Shown here in pieces: positions 1 to 5,129 of a DNA stretch of 5,129 nucleotides. The position numbers and the translations under genes are program-made. The notes beneath the pieces are model-generated. The model had not been told where the DNA came from and searched no databases. It worked only from the letters and a program-made list of their open reading frames with translations. Within the stretch, counting starts at the first letter, position 1; the number at the start of each line of letters is the position of its first letter. Source of the stretch: an uncultured Gemmatimonadota bacterium (GTDB taxonomy: Bacteria; Gemmatimonadota; Gemmatimonadetes; Gemmatimonadales; Gemmatimonadaceae); assembly GCA_946479995.1 (NCBI GenBank), contig CAMLIU010000170.1, positions 1 to 5,129 on the forward strand, read 5' to 3'.

Positions 1-653
1 TCGGGGATGAGGATCCGCTTGCTGGTCAGGGGCTCGATGATGCCCTTGGAGGCGAGCTGCTTGAGGGCGCGCGAGACGGACTCGCGGGCGGTGCCGAGCT
101 CGAAGGAGAGCTCCTCGCGGGTGCGGTCGAGCGTGATCTCGGTGCCGCGCTTCGTCACCGTGCCGTGGTGTTCGGCGTACTCGGCGAGGAAGCTGGCGAG
201 GCGGGCGGCCACGTCGCGGAAGGCGAGCGTCTCCGTGACGTGCACGAGGTGGCGCAGGCGCTTGCCGAGGGTGCGGATCACCGCCTGGGCGACGTCGGGG
301 TTCTCGCGGTAGAGCGCCTCGAAGTCCGCGCGCGGGAGGAAGACGAGGCGCGATTCCACCTCCGTGATCGCCGACGCGGGATAGTCGCCGCCGTCGAAGA
401 GCGGCAGCTCGGCGACGGGGCGGCCAGGGCCCTCGGTGTGCAGCACCTGTTCGCGACCGGCGGGACTCGTGCGGTAGATGCGCACGCGCCCGCTCTCCAC
501 GATGTACAGGCCACGGCAGGGCTCCCCGGTGGTGAAGAGCACGTGTCCCGCGGCGAAGGTGCGGGAGACGCAGCGCGATGCCAGGCGCGCGAGCGCGTCG
601 GAGCCGAAGCTGGCGAAGAGCGGGAGCTGCTGCAGGAGGTCGAGGGGAGCCAT
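1..653 (-). CDS. Crp/Fnr-family transcriptional regulator (3' end cut by window edge)
   Basis: A DNA-binding regulator with an N-terminal cyclic-nucleotide-binding-like sensor fold and a C-terminal winged helix. At least 217 codons are visible, close to the usual 220-240, so only a few C-terminal residues are missing. The sensor domain spans about residues 5-115 (PLF..., AAGHVLFTTGEP, GLYIVESGRVRIYR, AELPLFDGGDYPASA). The long dimer helix is about 117-160 and the HTH about 178-206 (REELSFELGTARESVSRALKQL). The recognition helix has R190, E191, S194 and R195, matching the R-E-x-x-x-R contact pattern of E. coli CRP and the E-x-x-S-R pattern of FNR. Only two cysteines are seen (C28, C46), so an FNR-type [4Fe-4S] sensor is unlikely; the ligand is unknown, and a Dnr-like NO/haem or nucleotide sensor is possible. 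ATG at 653 is preferred; GTG at 677 in the same frame is an alternative, and neither has a strong SD. It is divergent from an Fe-S repair operon that it probably controls. Confidence 0.9.
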   Translation of the reverse strand, partial: MAPLDLLQQLPLFASFGSDALARLASRCVSRTFAAGHVLFTTGEPCRGLYIVESGRVRIYRTSPAGREQVLHTEGPGRPVAELPLFDGGDYPASAITEVESRLVFLPRADFEALYRENPDVAQAVIRTLGKRLRHLVHVTETLAFRDVAARLASFLAEYAEHHGTVTKRGTEITLDRTREELSFELGTARESVSRALKQLASKGIIEPLTSKRILIP

Positions 654-697
654 GACGAACGGATCAGGGTCGGGCACCGACGTGCGGTGGTCGTGGC

Positions 698-713
698 TGT
701 GACAATCGTCACG
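698..713. promoter_or_regulatory. CRP/FNR-type operator palindrome between divergent genes
   Basis: TGTGA-N6-TCACG is one base from the E. coli CRP consensus TGTGA-N6-TCACA. It can also be read as perfect 5-bp arms GTGAC-N4-GTCAC (699-712), the spacing used by FNR/DNR sites. It lies 45 bp upstream of the regulator's ATG and 79 bp upstream of the DUF59 ATG. The centre is at 705.5. The adjacent gene encodes a Crp/Fnr protein whose recognition helix has the R-E-x-x-x-R pattern that reads TGTGA in CRP. The likely role is autoregulation plus activation of the rightward operon (inference). Confidence 0.65.
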
Positions 714-734
714 CGCGTGCGCGCCGGTGCAGGC

Positions 735-740
735 GAGAAT
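735..740 (+). promoter_or_regulatory. Candidate -10 box of the DUF59-DUF542-cupin operon
   Basis: GAGAAT matches TATAAT at four of six positions, including the final AAT. It would place the start point near 747. The upstream palindrome would then be centred at -41.5, the class II position for CRP/FNR activators, where the activator overlaps and replaces the -35 element. No good -35 hexamer is seen, as expected for an activator-dependent promoter. The call rests mainly on this geometry. Confidence 0.35.
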
Positions 741-751
741 GCGTCATCGCC

Positions 752-765
752 GCGGCATGTGCCGC
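752..765 (+). repeat. Perfect short inverted repeat in the operon leader
   Basis: GCGGCA-TG-TGCCGC has six-base perfect arms around a two-base centre. In RNA it could form a five-pair hairpin with an ATGT loop. It sits in the predicted 5' leader, about 27 bases before the DUF59 start codon. It may be a second operator or a leader hairpin; in GC-rich DNA it may also be chance. Confidence 0.4.
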
Positions 766-791
766 TTCACGTAACCTACACGGTGATGCCG

Positions 792-1085
792 ATGAGTGAA
801 TCGGATCCGCGCATCGAGGTGCTCTGGCGCAACCTCGCGACGGTCATCGATCCCGAGATCGGACTGGACATCGTCACGCTCGGCCTCGTGTACGGCGTGG
901 AGGTGACGGATGACGTCGCGGTGATCACCCACACGCTCACGACGCCCGGCTGCCCGATGGAGCGGATCATCACCGACGGCATCCGTGCGGCAGTGATGCA
1001 GACCGATGGGATCTGCGGCGTAGAGACGCACATCGTGTGGGAGCCGGCGTGGCACTCCGGCATGATCGCGCCAAACGCGTGGTGA
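792..1085 (+). CDS. DUF59/MIP18-family metal-sulfur cluster assembly protein
   Basis: A 97-residue single-domain protein of the DUF59 family (SufT, PaaD and MIP18 relatives), cytosolic helpers in Fe-S cluster assembly or delivery. The family signature DPEIGLDIVTLGLVYGV is at residues 20-36, followed by a beta strand and the conserved T-x-P-G-C-P-M loop with the reactive cysteine C54. The family's C-terminal W-x-P-x-W motif is at 83-87. A second cysteine, C75, lies in GICGVE. ATG 792 is chosen because GGTGAT (782-787), complementary to the 16S tail, precedes it by four bases; ATG 786 in the same frame would add two residues. The open frame continues upstream to 165, but that part is antisense to the regulator gene and not protein-like. 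It is the first gene of a three-gene run with the DUF542 and cupin genes. The exact client protein is unknown. Confidence 0.88.
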   Translation: MSESDPRIEVLWRNLATVIDPEIGLDIVTLGLVYGVEVTDDVAVITHTLTTPGCPMERIITDGIRAAVMQTDGICGVETHIVWEPAWHSGMIAPNAW

Positions 1086-1121
1086 ATGGCGCGCCTTCTT
1101 CCGAACTCCCGAGGAGTCAGC

Positions 1122-1331
1122 ATGGCAGGCAACAGCATCGATACAAGCGTAGCCGTGAACGAGATGGTGGCCCGGCATCCGGAGACGATGCCCGTCTTCA
1201 ACCGGTTCGGGCTCGACACCTGCTGCGGCGGGGGCGCCCCGATCGCCGAGGCGGCGCGGCGCGATGGCGTCAACCTCGACGACCTCGTGAAGGCGCTTGA
1301 AGAGGCCCTGAGCGCGGCGGGGGTAGCGTGA
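1122..1331 (+). CDS. Stand-alone DUF542 (ScdA/RIC N-terminal domain) protein
   Basis: A 69-residue protein consisting only of the DUF542 domain, which in ScdA/YtfE (RIC, repair of iron centres) precedes a di-iron hemerythrin-like domain. The diagnostic segment is at residues 19-38: HPETMPVFNRFGLDTCCGGG, with the vicinal cysteines C34-C35 and a glycine triplet. The C-terminal helix LDDLVKALEEAL also matches the family. No hemerythrin domain follows. ATG 1122 is chosen because GAGGAG (1111-1116) lies five bases upstream; the frame is open back to 1086, but that start lacks an SD. It begins 36 bp after the DUF59 stop, and its TGA overlaps the next gene's GTG. RIC proteins repair Fe-S clusters after nitrosative or oxidative damage; a similar role here, perhaps with a separate partner, is inferred from family and context. 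Confidence 0.88.
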   Translation: MAGNSIDTSVAVNEMVARHPETMPVFNRFGLDTCCGGGAPIAEAARRDGVNLDDLVKALEEALSAAGVA

Positions 1332-1660
1332 AGCTCCTTTCCCCACTCGGTGCGGCGCGGGACGCCGTATCCGCGCAGGCGACCCGCCCGGCGACCGCTC
1401 TCCTGCACGACGTTCCCGATGCGCGCGTCGTGGTGTTCCGCATCGAGCCGGGGCAGGAGGTGGCGCCGCACACCAGCAGCTCCACGGTGCTTCTTTCCGT
1501 GGTGAAGGGCACCGGTACAGTGAGCGGCGCGTCGGGCGAGAGCAGCGTCTCCCCCGGTGACGTGGTGGCGTACGACGCGGGCGAGCTGCACGGCATGAAG
1601 GCCGGCACCGAGCAGCTCGTCATCGCAGCGATCATCACTCCGCGGCCGGGAGCGCGGTAA
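1328..1660 (+). CDS. Small single-domain cupin protein
   Basis: A 110-residue protein with one cupin beta-barrel. Motif 1 corresponds to residues 41-61 (PGQEVAPHTSSSTVLLSVVKG) and motif 2 to 76-91 (PGDVVAYDAGELHGMK). Classical metal-binding cupins use H-x-H...E plus a later H. Here H48 and H88 remain, while the second motif 1 histidine is S50 and no glutamate stands at the third ligand place, so metal binding would be reduced or altered. It starts at GTG 1328, sharing GTGA with the DUF542 stop, with a GGGGG stretch just upstream, so translation is probably coupled. No signal peptide is seen. Its function is unknown. Placement with DUF59 and DUF542 suggests a part in Fe-S or NO/redox stress handling, or a sensor/binding role rather than an enzyme. 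Confidence 0.85.
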   Translation: MKLLSPLGAARDAVSAQATRPATALLHDVPDARVVVFRIEPGQEVAPHTSSSTVLLSVVKGTGTVSGASGESSVSPGDVVAYDAGELHGMKAGTEQLVIAAIITPRPGAR

Positions 1661-1735: not shown

Positions 1736-2308
1736 ATGAACACGCTCGAGCTGGTCGCTGCGCTCGTCGGCGCGCTGAGCGTGTACCTCAGCGTGCGCCA
1801 GAACATCTGGAGCTGGCCCACCGCGATCGTCAACGTGGTGCTGTACACCCTCGTGTTCTACGAGGCCAAGCTGTACGCCGACATGGGGCTCCAGGTCGTC
1901 TACGCCATCCTGTCGGTCTACGGATGGTATGAATGGCTGTACGGCGGGGAGGGGCGCACCGAGCTCCACGTCACGCGCACTGGCCCCAGGCTCGGCGTGA
2001 TGCTCGCCACGATCGCGCTCATCGGCTCGGCGTGGCTCGGCAGCTTCCTCCACCACGAGACCGACGCTGCACTCCCATACATGGATGCCGCGCTCTCCAG
2101 TACCAGCCTCGTCGCGCAGTGGATGATGACGCGGAAGCTGCTGGAGAACTGGCTGGTGTGGATCGCAGTGGACGTGCTCTACGTCGGGATGTTCGTCTTC
2201 AAGGGGCTCTACCTCACGTCGGGGCTGTACGCGGTGTTCCTCGCCCTCGCCGTGCGGGGCTACATCGACTGGCGGCGCTCGATGCGCGCCACCGTGACCG
2301 CGGCCTGA
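1736..2308 (+). CDS. pnuC: PnuC-family vitamin-precursor transporter (nicotinamide riboside or thiamine)
   Basis: A 190-residue inner-membrane protein of the PnuC family, which carries out facilitated diffusion of nicotinamide riboside (PnuC), thiamine (PnuT) or riboflavin (PnuX), with trapping by a cytosolic kinase. Length and helix pattern are typical: an N-terminal helix at about 3-20, NIWSWPTAIVNVVLYTLVFYEAKLYADMGLQ at 23-53, the W-x-x-W substrate-site motif at W64/W67, a long helix near 86-104, then ENWLVWIAVDVLYVGMFVFKGLYLTSGLYAVFLAL at 137-171. The C-terminus is basic (RRSMR), suiting the cytosol. ATG 1736 has a weak SD (GAAG, seven bases upstream). The next gene, a NadR-like kinase, follows without a gap. 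The convergent neighbour is a TPP-riboswitch-controlled TonB receptor, so thiamine is a real alternative substrate (PnuT); D146 in the penultimate helix and the motifs seen do not let me decide. The family call is sure, the substrate is not. Confidence 0.92.
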   Translation: MNTLELVAALVGALSVYLSVRQNIWSWPTAIVNVVLYTLVFYEAKLYADMGLQVVYAILSVYGWYEWLYGGEGRTELHVTRTGPRLGVMLATIALIGSAWLGSFLHHETDAALPYMDAALSSTSLVAQWMMTRKLLENWLVWIAVDVLYVGMFVFKGLYLTSGLYAVFLALAVRGYIDWRRSMRATVTAA

Positions 2309-2851
2309 GTGACGGCCGACGGCCTGGTACGCGTGTGCGTGACGGGGCCGGAATCCACCGGCAAGACGACGCTCGCGCGGAGGCTCGCCGAGTGGAGGGA
2401 GACCGAATGGGTACCGGAAGCGTCGCGGGTGTACGCGGAGCGGAAGGGCGCGCCGCTCACGGCGGCCGACGTCGGACCGATCGCGAAGGCACACATCGCG
2501 CTCGCCGATGCCGCGGCCGAGCGTGCACGGGCACGCGGCGCATCGCTGCTGGTGCTCGACACCGACCTGCTGAGCACCGTGGTGTACGCACGCCATTACT
2601 ACGGCGCCGCGCCGGCGTGGGTGCAGCGGGCGGAGCGCGAGCGTCGCGCCGAGCTCTACCTGCTGTGCGGCGTGGACGTGCCGTGGATCCCGGACGGCAT
2701 CCGCGACCGTCCGGAGAACCGTGACGAGATGTTCACCCTCTTCGCACGCGCCCTCGCCAGCCGCCGCGCGAACGTGGTGCGGGTGCGCGGCGGCTGGGAG
2801 GAGCGGTGGGCGACGGCGCGCGACGCCGTCAGAACCCTATGCGAGCGGTAA
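2309..2851 (+). CDS. NadR-like P-loop kinase (ribosylnicotinamide-kinase-type domain, AAA_28)
   Basis: A 180-residue cytosolic nucleoside-kinase-like ATPase resembling the C-terminal kinase domain of NadR, which makes NMN from nicotinamide riboside. The Walker A loop GPESTGKTT is at 13-21. The family's VPEASRVY segment, with E37 and R40, is at 35-42. A Walker-B-like LVLDTDLLST stands at 81-90, and the family motif VPWIPDGIRDRPENR at 124-138. The N-terminal HTH and NMN adenylyltransferase domains of enterobacterial NadR are absent, so this is a kinase-only form. The GTG at 2309 directly follows the pnuC stop (TGAGTG) with no SD, indicating coupled translation and a transport-plus-trapping pair. 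Given the neighbouring thiamine-type receptor, thiamine could be the substrate instead; that is inference. The last 23 bp overlap the 3' end of the convergent receptor gene. Confidence 0.88.
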   Translation: MTADGLVRVCVTGPESTGKTTLARRLAEWRETEWVPEASRVYAERKGAPLTAADVGPIAKAHIALADAAAERARARGASLLVLDTDLLSTVVYARHYYGAAPAWVQRAERERRAELYLLCGVDVPWIPDGIRDRPENRDEMFTLFARALASRRANVVRVRGGWEERWATARDAVRTLCER

Positions 2852-4931
2852 CGGTGACGTTCCTCGGCGCGAGCATGTAGTAGTACGGCTCCATCGCCTC
2901 CGGATCGCTGCTCCCGGCGAGCGCGCCCGGATAGCCGCCGGTGTAGACGCGGTTGTCGAACAGGTTGCGGACGGCGACCAGCAGTGACTGTCCGCGCAGG
3001 TTGAAGGTGAGCGCGCCGTCGGCGTACCAGCTCGCGGGCACCACGAATCGCGGGTCGTTGGTGTTGGTGAGCATCATCCGCGACGTATAGCGGCCGTCGA
3101 GATCGAGCGAGAGCCAGTCGGCGAGTGCGGCGCGGATGCCGTGGCCGGTGACGAGCTTCGGCGTCATCAGTGCCGTGACGTCGTGGTACGACTGACCGCT
3201 GGCGTCGTCGGTGTAGTCGGCGATGCGCGCGTCGGTGATCGACGCGGTGGCGACGACGGCGAGGCGAGGCATTGCCTGCCAGGTGAGATCACCCTCGACG
3301 CCGCGACGGACGCTGCGCGCCACGTTCTTCCGCAGCTCGTAGCCGAGCTGGCTGATCTGGCCGATCGGCGCGATCTCGTCGTGGAACTGCATGAGGAAGA
3401 GGTTGGCGTGCGCCTGCAGCCAGGGACGCGCGAAGTCGACGCCTGCCTCGAGGTCGCGCGCCGACTCGGGATGCACACGGGTGAGCGGGAAGACCTCGCG
3501 CGCCGTCACGCTGTCCACGTCGTCAGCGCCGGCGAACATGTCGGCGCGCGTGGGCTCGCGCCCGTTGATGCCGGCGCTGGCGTAGGTAGAGAGCGCGTCG
3601 CTCAGGCGCAGCCGCACCCCCGCCTTCGGGTTGAGGAAGCTCCAGCTCACGTCGGCGGGTGCGACGCCGGAATTGGGCGTGGGCTTGTAGCGGAACTGGG
3701 CGAAGCGGAGCTGCACGTCGCCGTACACCGTGGCGCGGCCGCGGGTGACGGAGCCCTTGGCGAAGGCGCTTTGCTCGCCCTTGTAGCCGGTGTTGTCGTA
3801 CCAGCGCGTCTCCATGTCGGGGCGCTGTCCCGCCCAGTGCTCGCGCGCGTAGCGCGATACGTGCACGCCCGCCGACGCGCTGGCACCCTGGCCGGACCAG
3901 TCGAGGGAGCTGATGACGCCGCCCCAGCGCGAATGCAGGCCGTAGTGGTAGGCGTCGCTCAGGTCGCCGTTGCCGGTTGGGTAGTCGTACCAGCCGCCGG
4001 CGTCGAAGCCGTAGGCCGTCGTCGCCACACTGAACGCCGGCGACAGGGCATGCGTCCACGCCAGGCTCAGGAGGTCCTGGTGAAAGCGGTCGCCGACGGC
4101 GAGCGCCGGGCTGTTGCCGAACGGGTTGTCGCGCGGCTCCCGCTGCAGCACGGAGAGCGGCGACGCGAGATACGCCTGCTGGTTGGAGGAGATGCCGGCG
4201 AGGAGGGTGGCCTTCACCACGTCGCGCGCGCCGAACCATCCGCCGCTGGCGAATGCGCTGCGCGAGCTGTTCCCGGAGTTGAAGCGATAGCCGTCGGTGT
4301 GCTGGCCCGAGCCGCGCACGTAGCCGGCGAAGCCCCTGGCGGTGAGCCCCGACTGCGCCTCGAACGAGGCACGCGACGTGTTGTACGCGCCGCGCGTGAG
4401 CTGCAGCCGCGCGCCACGGGACACGCCGGCGATGGGGATGGATTCGAAGTTCACCGAGCCGGCGTACGATGCGACGCCAGGAGTGCTGGCGCCGACGCCG
4501 CGCTGCACCTGCACCGAGGCGATGCTGGTGGCGAAGTCGGGGAAGTTGGAGAAGTAGAGCGCCTCGTCCTCCGGCTCGTTGAGCGGGATGCCGTCGAGGG
4601 TGATGTTGATGCGCGTCTGGTCGATGCCGCGCAGGCGCATGTACGAGTAGTTGGACCCGGATCCACTCTCCGAGTACGCCGTCATGCCGGGCGCGCGCTG
4701 GAGCAGGATGGGCATCTCCTGCCCGGTGTACTCGCGCTGCAGCTCGGCGCGGGAGATGGTCTTCTGCGAGATGGGCGCGTCGTGACCACGGATCGCGGTG
4801 ACGCGCACCGACTCGAGCCGCTGGGCGGGGGTCGCATGGAGGGAGTCGGCCGCCGAGTCGGCGGGGACGCGCACGGTGTCGCGCACCGACTGCGGCGACT
4901 GGAGTGCGAGGGCGAGGAGGAGTGCCAGCAC
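2829..4931 (-). CDS. TonB-dependent outer-membrane receptor, probable thiamine importer
   Basis: About 700 residues forming a 22-strand outer-membrane barrel gated by a plug and energised by TonB. A hydrophobic signal segment (LALLLALALQS) is followed by a TonB-box-like ESVRVTAI at about 40-47. The plug runs to about 170 and includes YTGQEMPILLQRAPGM, MRLRGIDQTRINITLDGIP and VQVQRGVGAST. The barrel follows, with the typical end NLFDNRVYTGGYPG and VTVTARIGF with terminal F. No N-terminal carboxypeptidase-like or signalling domain is present. GTG 4931 is preferred because GGAG (4942-4939) lies seven bases upstream; TTG 4937 is in frame but only one base from that SD. Neither start gives a basic signal-peptide n-region, which is unusual, and no in-frame ATG exists before the stop at 5009. 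The TPP riboswitch in the leader points to thiamine or a phosphate ester as substrate. Confidence 0.93.
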   Translation of the reverse strand: MLALLLALALQSPQSVRDTVRVPADSAADSLHATPAQRLESVRVTAIRGHDAPISQKTISRAELQREYTGQEMPILLQRAPGMTAYSESGSGSNYSYMRLRGIDQTRINITLDGIPLNEPEDEALYFSNFPDFATSIASVQVQRGVGASTPGVASYAGSVNFESIPIAGVSRGARLQLTRGAYNTSRASFEAQSGLTARGFAGYVRGSGQHTDGYRFNSGNSSRSAFASGGWFGARDVVKATLLAGISSNQQAYLASPLSVLQREPRDNPFGNSPALAVGDRFHQDLLSLAWTHALSPAFSVATTAYGFDAGGWYDYPTGNGDLSDAYHYGLHSRWGGVISSLDWSGQGASASAGVHVSRYAREHWAGQRPDMETRWYDNTGYKGEQSAFAKGSVTRGRATVYGDVQLRFAQFRYKPTPNSGVAPADVSWSFLNPKAGVRLRLSDALSTYASAGINGREPTRADMFAGADDVDSVTAREVFPLTRVHPESARDLEAGVDFARPWLQAHANLFLMQFHDEIAPIGQISQLGYELRKNVARSVRRGVEGDLTWQAMPRLAVVATASITDARIADYTDDASGQSYHDVTALMTPKLVTGHGIRAALADWLSLDLDGRYTSRMMLTNTNDPRFVVPASWYADGALTFNLRGQSLLVAVRNLFDNRVYTGGYPGALAGSSDPEAMEPYYYMLAPRNVTVTARIGF

Positions 4932-4936
4932 GTGCA

Positions 4937-4969
4937 AGCTCCGGTGAATCGCGTGAACGCGAGGGAGCT
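4937..4969 (-). promoter_or_regulatory. SD-sequestering hairpin, expression platform of the TPP riboswitch
   Basis: On the minus strand AGCTCC (4969-4964) pairs perfectly with GGAGCT (4942-4937), which contains the likely SD GGAG. A nested perfect stem TCGCG-TTCA-CGCGA (4962-4949) closes the interior. This would hide the ribosome-binding site just before the GTG start. The anti-SD strand GCTCCC (4968-4963) can instead pair with GGGAGC (5040-5035) at the 3' edge of the aptamer, leaving the SD free. No T tract follows, so translational rather than transcriptional control is inferred. Confidence 0.6.
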
Positions 4970-5027
4970 GGCCGGCGTGGGCGGAATGGGTGCGATGCGC
5001 GAGAGCTCATGCGCAGTCCGCCTGCAC

Positions 5028-5126
5028 CAGTGACGCTCCCTTCGCTGGAATGACCCAGATCAGGTTCGACGGGTGTGATCTCAGCCCGCGCTTGTAGGAA
5101 TCGTGCGCGGGCACCCCGTGCCACTG
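5028..5126 (-). promoter_or_regulatory. TPP riboswitch (thi-box aptamer)
   Basis: On the minus strand the conserved thi-box elements occur in order: GGGGTGCCC (5117-5109), CTGAGA (5084-5079), ACACCCG, ACCTGATCTGG (5065-5055) and CCAGCGAAGGGA (5048-5037). P1 is CAGTGGC (5126-5120) with GTCACTG (5034-5028), seven pairs including one G-U. P3 is CCCGCGC (5111-5105) with GCGCGGG (5091-5085). All core elements are present at normal spacing, so the aptamer looks intact. It lies about 96 bases upstream of the receptor's GTG and is expected to lower expression when TPP is abundant. The promoter lies beyond the window edge. Confidence 0.96.
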
Positions 5127-5129
5127 TCC

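What the first reader, a model, noticed from the sequence alone, without database searches (positions are those of the whole stretch)
1736..5126. Possible complete thiamine salvage locus: TPP-controlled TonB receptor, PnuC/PnuT-type permease and NadR-like kinase
Seen: an intact TPP riboswitch in front of a TonB-dependent receptor, which is convergent and overlapping with a pnuC-family gene coupled to a kinase-only NadR homologue. Known: PnuC relatives include thiamine carriers (PnuT), TPP-regulated TonB receptor genes occur beside pnuT in Bacteroidetes, and PnuC-type carriers rely on a cytosolic kinase for trapping. Inference: the NadR-like protein could be a thiamine kinase or pyrophosphokinase rather than a ribosylnicotinamide kinase. 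The three proteins would then take thiamine from outside the cell to a phosphorylated form. The weak point is that only the receptor, not the permease pair, has a visible riboswitch.
Basis: partly seen in the sequence, partly recalled or inferred. Interest (0 to 1): 0.72.

Follow-up and report, generated by a model that had tools for sequence, protein, structure and literature searches.

The report
Thiamine salvage locus, NadR-like kinase
A bacterial vitamin B1 uptake locus pairs a riboswitch-controlled outer-membrane receptor with an inner-membrane carrier and a small kinase annotated as an NAD enzyme, which comparison of many genomes suggests is really an unrecognised thiamine kinase that traps imported vitamin B1.

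Summary
In detail: a complete TPP riboswitch (62 bits) precedes a TonB-dependent receptor; a pnuC-family gene and a kinase-only NadR homologue converge on it (the receptor overlaps the kinase, not pnuC). Nearest named kin are Gemmatimonadaceae MAGs.

The thiamine reading is well supported. In Bacteroidota the same riboswitch-TonB slot often carries thiamine pyrophosphokinase (TPK) instead. Of 50 kinase-bearing genomes 0 have TPK, 47 ThiL, 12 ThiC, 19 ThiE/TenI. Of 31 Gemmatimonadota (150 searched) lacking both ThiC and ThiE/TenI, 30 carry the kinase; NadA shows no such pattern.

Most likely function: thiamine kinase. Thiamine enters by TonB receptor and PnuT, becomes ThMP, and ThiL makes TPP. 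Against: 29 of 39 kinase-only Bacteroidota loci of an even draw lack a nearby riboswitch; seven genomes with DUF4301-fused kinases also have TPK; the kinase tree does not set kinase-only proteins apart from NadR as one clade; the window's closest relatives keep ThiE/TenI. Nothing here is biochemical. Novelty: new variant of a known salvage system, with a probable new thiamine-kinase family.

The parts
5019..5128 (-). TPP riboswitch aptamer
   Evidence: RF00059, 62.2 bits, complete; 107 bits with session model R1, which was built from it among others
4938..4968 (-). possible SD-sequestering hairpin (GCUCC...GGAGC around a CGCG stem); its 5' arm can instead pair with the aptamer's 3' GGGAGC at 5035-5040, and does so in the minimum-energy fold of the whole leader
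   Evidence: GCUCC-like arm and GGAG seen in the six Gemmatimonadota leaders compared; fold without ligand; inference
2829..4931 (-). TonB-dependent receptor, predicted thiamine receptor; GTG start at 4931 preferred (ORF list: TTG at 4937)
   Evidence: Plug and TonB_dep_Rec_b-barrel; shared start and SD
1736..2308 (+). PnuC-family inner-membrane carrier, predicted PnuT (thiamine)
   Evidence: PF04973 195 bits; tree
2309..2851 (+). kinase-only homologue of the NadR kinase domain, predicted thiamine kinase

Best explanation
The locus is a thiamine (vitamin B1) salvage system. When cellular TPP is low, the riboswitch lets the TonB receptor be made; the receptor brings scarce thiamine into the periplasm. 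The PnuC-family protein acts as PnuT, a facilitator for thiamine across the inner membrane. The NadR-like kinase phosphorylates thiamine to thiamine monophosphate (ThMP), trapping it; ThiL, encoded elsewhere, makes TPP. Shown: the riboswitch, the protein families, the operon TPP>TonB>pnuC>kinase in relatives, absence of TPK and retention of ThiL in kinase-bearing genomes. Inferred: substrates of receptor, carrier and kinase; ThMP rather than TPP as product; translational control by SD sequestration.
For: Riboswitch heads TPP>TonB>pnuC>kinase on one strand in 8 of 80 loci (L001-L003 Gemmatimonadota; L008, L017, L026, L027, L036 Acidobacteriota); 47 of 80 have it nearby. The kinase goes with TPP>TonB also where no pnuC was called (L043, L123, L125). 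L060 adds an NMT1/THI5-like protein. The same slot holds TPK in Bacteroidota: 14 of 20 TPK loci fetched (of 96) have riboswitch, TonB, TPK in that order (three of the 14 riboswitch hits are weak, 25-28 bits); OMthi-pnuT-tnr3 is the published operon (PMC5613172, passages). In 50 kinase-bearing genomes: TPK 0, ThiL over cut-off 47, ThiC 12, ThiE/TenI over cut-off 19, ThiK over cut-off 0; 29 of 50 have ThiL but neither ThiC nor ThiE/TenI, in three phyla, among them all five Acidobacteriota with the full operon. Gemmatimonadota (150): ThiC in 6 of 43 with kinase, 96 of 107 without; of 31 lacking ThiC and ThiE/TenI, 30 have the kinase; control NadA 38 of 43 and 69 of 107. Bacteroidota (198): TPK in 0 of 39 kinase-only genomes, 88 of 146 without kinase.
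Against: In an even draw of Bacteroidota only 10 of 39 kinase-only loci have a TPP riboswitch in the stretch fetched (about 6 kb each side, less at contig ends); Rfam found none in 22 of the other 29. All 7 genomes with long (733-800 aa) kinase frames also have TPK, although 5 of the 6 such loci fetched have a riboswitch nearby. In the kinase tree NadR-length rows lie within the Bacteroidota half, so kinase-only proteins are not one clade apart from NadR. In the window the pair has no riboswitch of its own. The window's nearest relatives (L001-L006) have a ThiE/TenI homologue and three of the six have ThiC, so the ThMP gap is not shown for its own lineage. Fold and sequence are those of NadR kinase domains. 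The Fisher tests ignore kinship. Absences in MAGs may be assembly gaps; ThiL in 47 of 50 argues against that as the whole cause.
Confidence: 0.77

Rival explanations
1. The pair salvages nicotinamide riboside (PnuC plus ribosylnicotinamide kinase) and only happens to lie beside a TPP-regulated receptor.
For: Best fold and profile matches are NadR kinase domains; source names say NadR and PnuC; NadR-length proteins sit beside pnuC in 10 of 11 such Bacteroidota loci fetched; kinase-only proteins do not form one clade apart from them.
Against: Riboswitch-headed operons in two phyla and riboswitch neighbourhood in three; no NMN adenylyltransferase part; in Gemmatimonadota the kinase goes with missing thiamine synthesis and not with missing NadA; five genomes (G099, G122, G196, G232, G236) hold both a NadR-length and a kinase-only match.
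Confidence: 0.1
2. Same system, but the kinase is a one-step thiamine pyrophosphokinase (thiamine to TPP) replacing TPK directly.
For: It takes TPK's place in the riboswitch-TonB slot and TPK is absent from 50 of 50 genomes.
Against: ThiL is over cut-off in 47 of 50 genomes and would be idle in the 29 of them with neither ThiC nor ThiE/TenI.
Confidence: 0.08
3. The system imports and phosphorylates a thiamine precursor (HMP or thiazole alcohol) rather than thiamine.
For: TPP riboswitches also control precursor uptake (established knowledge); L060 has an NMT1/THI5-like protein next door; the window's relatives keep ThiE/TenI.
Against: 31 of 50 kinase-bearing genomes have no ThiE/TenI over cut-off, so precursors could not be joined by it, yet ThiL stays.
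Confidence: 0.04

Closest known systems
Bacteroides OMthi-pnuT-tnr3 thiamine salvage operon
   Same: TPP riboswitch, TonB receptor, PnuC-family carrier, phosphorylating enzyme (PMC5613172, passages)
   Different: the enzyme is NadR-kinase-like instead of Tnr3/TPK; in the window the pair is convergent to the receptor
NadR ribosylnicotinamide kinase domain with PnuC (NR salvage)
   Same: kinase fold and sequence family, pnuC next door
   Different: no NMN adenylyltransferase part; thiamine regulation nearby and genome content
ThiK (YcfN) thiamine kinase of E. coli
   Same: predicted reaction thiamine to ThMP, followed by ThiL (function of ThiK recalled)
   Different: other family: the window's kinase matches AAA_28; no ThiK over cut-off in 50 kinase-bearing genomes, 17 weak matches

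Membership tests
TPP riboswitch (RF00059) | covariance-model score over gathering cut-off, full length | tested here: met
   62.2 against 54.3 bits, 1-105/105
TonB-dependent receptor | Plug and beta-barrel domains | tested here: met
TonB-dependent receptor for thiamine | binds or imports thiamine | not testable with these tools
   only its riboswitch points to thiamine
PnuT (thiamine carrier) | member of the PnuC family | tested here: met
   PF04973 195 bits; 4qtn by sequence, E 5e-11
PnuT (thiamine carrier) | gene under a TPP riboswitch | tested here: inconclusive
   not in the window; in 8 of 80 related loci one riboswitch heads TonB, pnuC and kinase
PnuT (thiamine carrier) | apart from NR carriers in a tree | tested here: inconclusive
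   E. coli PnuC with 5 of 10 NadR-linked PnuCs (99), window in another clade (96), but E. coli is a long branch, 5 NadR-linked rows lie elsewhere and no proven PnuT was available
PnuT (thiamine carrier) | transports thiamine | not testable with these tools
   -
NadR | NMN adenylyltransferase domain plus kinase domain | tested here: not met
   only the kinase part of TIGR01526, 90 of 341 bits
NadR-type kinase fold | same fold as solved NadR kinase domains | tested here: met
Thiamine pyrophosphokinase (TPK/ThiN/Tnr3) | TPK_catalytic domain PF04263 | tested here: not met
   Pfam scan of the kinase gives AAA_28 and weak AAA matches, no PF04263
Thiamine kinase (function) | phosphorylates thiamine to ThMP | not testable with these tools
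   genome content supports it

The most novel reading that the evidence does not exclude
The kinase-only NadR-like proteins beside pnuC are an unrecognised thiamine-kinase family spread over Gemmatimonadota, Acidobacteriota and Bacteroidota, a third answer to thiamine phosphorylation besides TPK and ThiK. In thiamine auxotrophs that kept ThiL but lost ThiC and ThiE it is the only visible entry to TPP, although its members are named after NAD metabolism.
Probability: 0.72. Interest if true: 0.72.

Novelty: new variant of a known kind. Interest (0 to 1): 0.63.

Why it matters
If true, a widely distributed gene that sources name 'NadR type nicotinamide-nucleotide adenylyltransferase' is the vitamin B1 trapping enzyme of many uncultured and cultured bacteria. 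That would explain how bacteria without ThiC, ThiE and TPK live on external thiamine while keeping ThiL, would change predictions of B1 auxotrophy and cross-feeding, and would show the NadR kinase fold and its carrier family re-used together for a second vitamin.

Tried and rejected
The PnuC motif WxxWxxx(N/D), a recalled candidate for telling PnuT from PnuC, does not discriminate: D in 48 of 54 TPP-linked rows but also in 10 of 10 NadR-linked rows, N in E. coli. Residues differing between 57 TPP-linked and 11 NadR kinases were listed (for example W104 and Y42 in window numbering), but 11 NadR rows are too few for a specificity signature. One cell of the Bacteroidota table was wrong (96 for 88) and was corrected. 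Aldose-epimerase neighbours or fusions in Hymenobacter were considered as pathway partners and left unexplained. Paper searches listed no paper whose listing, or the passages I opened, reports a NadR-like thiamine kinase; this covers only the held open library and those terms. The PnuT paper of Jaehme 2018 is not held and is known here only from citations seen. Not tested: YjbQ, archaeal-type ThMP synthase, ThiD, ThiM.

Rows dropped: the trees left out 4 short PnuC rows and 1 short kinase row. Alignment A6 was poor and was not used. The 50 genomes are those of 50 of the 80 loci, chosen by me for spread because the tool takes 50. The 20 TPK loci were chosen by me out of 96 hits. In the Bacteroidota draw the classes kinase-only, DUF4301-fused and NadR-length were set by open-frame length and gene overlap, with Pfam on a few examples; of the NadR-length proteins scanned, L146 has a weak adenylyltransferase match and L149 none, so that class is rough.
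Full report
What is there. The window carries, on the minus strand, a complete TPP riboswitch (5019-5128, 62.2 bits) and a TonB-dependent receptor (ORF 2829-4937). Converging on it, on the plus strand, are a PnuC-family gene (1736-2308) and a kinase (2309-2851) that matches AAA_28 and only the kinase part of NadR models. The kinase starts on the base after the pnuC stop. Receptor and kinase overlap at their 3' ends by 23 bases. The nearest homologues of both proteins, where an organism is named, are Gemmatimonadaceae MAGs. The window's own genome is not held.

Is the pair tied to thiamine? A scan of named genomes with a kinase alignment kept the best 80 of 398 loci, in Gemmatimonadota, Acidobacteriota and Bacteroidota with one Proteobacteria and one Planctomycetota record. 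A covariance model built from 11 Rfam-confirmed hits finds a TPP riboswitch at E below 1e-12 in 47 of the 80 loci and in the window. With 14 loci of a later draw (scores there are lower, 33.4 to 68.4 bits) 62 loci have one; 60 of the 62 have a TonB receptor called just downstream, and in the two others the fetched stretch ends first. In 8 loci (L001, L002, L003, L008, L017, L026, L027, L036) the order is riboswitch, TonB receptor, pnuC, kinase, all on one strand; in 4, the window included, riboswitch and receptor are on the other strand; in 50 they follow the kinase, 0.06 to 2.8 kb away and often with other genes between, so an operon is not implied there. In L043, L123 and L125 the kinase lies beside riboswitch and receptor with no pnuC called, so the link is to the kinase too. 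L060 adds an NMT1/THI5-like gene after the receptor. PMC7749635 (passages) states that PnuT genes are occasionally found with TPP riboswitches and that carrier specificity can be predicted from the riboswitch class.

What occupies the same slot elsewhere? In Bacteroides the published operon is OMthi-pnuT-tnr3, tnr3 being the TPP-forming enzyme (PMC5613172, passages). I fetched 20 loci, chosen out of 96 TPK hits in a draw of 198 Bacteroidota: 14 of 20 have a riboswitch hit (three of them weak, 25-28 bits), each followed by a TonB receptor and TPK on the same strand. One of them (L085) has a PnuC right after TPK; in 11 of the 14 a roughly 470-aa membrane protein that looks like a sodium:solute symporter follows (my reading of the sequence, not scanned). 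So the NadR-like kinase stands where TPK stands in these.

Genome content. In 50 kinase-bearing genomes (those of 50 of the 80 loci): TPK 0, ThiL over cut-off 47, with some match in all 50, ThiC 12, one of them only fragments, ThiE/TenI over cut-off 19, with weak matches in 4 more, ThiK over cut-off 0, with 17 weak matches. 29 of the 50 have ThiL but neither ThiC nor ThiE/TenI: 12 Gemmatimonadota, 8 Acidobacteriota, 9 Bacteroidota; all five Acidobacteriota with the full riboswitch operon are among them. ThiL acts on ThMP (established knowledge), so ThMP must be formed, and a thiamine kinase is the simplest source.

Two draws give controls. In 150 Gemmatimonadota the kinase is in 43 and TPK in none, so TPK absence alone says nothing there. 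ThiC is in 6 of 43 with the kinase and 96 of 107 without; ThiE/TenI over cut-off in 13 of 43 and 105 of 107. Of 31 genomes with neither, 30 have the kinase. The control gene NadA is in 38 of 43 with the kinase and 69 of 107 without (some matches are fragments), so the kinase does not track loss of NAD synthesis, as a substitute by NR salvage would. In 198 Bacteroidota, TPK is in 0 of 39 genomes with a kinase-only protein, 7 of 7 with a long frame (733-800 aa; two of six fetched were scanned and are kinase-DUF4301 fusions), 1 of 6 with only a NadR-length protein, and 88 of 146 with none (corrected in 71). Classes were set by frame length. Fisher p values (4e-19 and 5e-19 for Gemmatimonadota, 2e-13 for kinase-only Bacteroidota) ignore shared ancestry and are descriptive only. 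A paper reports thiamine synthesis to be much less prevalent in Gemmatimonadales and Longimicrobiales than in Palauibacterales (PMC10469786, passages).

Regulation. In six Gemmatimonadota leaders a GGAG sequence lies just upstream of a shared RTG-CTG start; an upstream GCUCC (CCUCC in L006) can pair with it around a CGCG-type stem, shorter in L002. In the minimum-energy fold of the whole window leader, computed without ligand, that arm pairs instead with the aptamer's 3' GGGAGC (4963-4968 with 5035-5040), as an anti-sequestering state would. This suggests TPP-dependent translational repression; it was not tested by covariation.

Against the reading. In the Bacteroidota draw only 10 of 39 kinase-only loci have a riboswitch in the fetched stretch; Rfam at gathering threshold found none in 22 of the other 29 and the remaining 7 were searched with R1 only. 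The long-frame kinases coexist with TPK in all 7 genomes. In Gemmatimonadota the riboswitch-linked loci belong to genomes that have ThiE/TenI (6 of 6), while 12 of 12 unlinked loci lack it (L004, whose contig ends at the kinase, left out): the window probably belongs to a lineage where salvage adds to synthesis rather than replaces it. Substrates of all three proteins remain inferred.

Verdict. The system as a whole is a known kind; the NadR-like kinase in it appears to be a new variant, with no report seen in the listings and passages.

Noticed in passing
Gemmatimonadota loci among L001-L041: Riboswitch-linked pnuC-kinase loci are all in genomes with ThiE/TenI (6 of 6); unlinked ones are all in genomes without it (12 of 12, L004 left out). 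It looks as if auxotrophs of this phylum do not keep TPP control of uptake; the five riboswitch-linked Acidobacteriota do not follow this.
   Followed up: partly
L118 6556-8103, L109 6601-8151, L139 2673-4886, L144 2687-5017: DUF4301 (unknown function, about 510 aa) follows the kinase in L118 and L109 and is fused to it in L139 and L144; it may belong to thiamine salvage. One paper in the library mentions DUF4301 (listing only).
   Followed up: partly
L034 7932-9443 and L018 8464-9492: In these Hymenobacter loci the kinase is fused to, or followed by, an aldose 1-epimerase-like domain; reason unknown.
   Followed up: no
window 3-1660: Neighbouring genes: Crp/Fnr-type regulator (-), FeS_assembly_P (SufT-like), ScdA_N and cupin proteins (+); perhaps an Fe-S or NO-stress set. 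The cupin ends 75 bases before pnuC, so the pair might be cotranscribed with them.
   Followed up: no
L081, L082, L084, L086-L092, L094: TPK in the riboswitch-TonB slot is followed by a roughly 470-aa membrane protein resembling a sodium:solute symporter, perhaps the thiamine carrier listed as ThiV in PMC6593275; not scanned.
   Followed up: no
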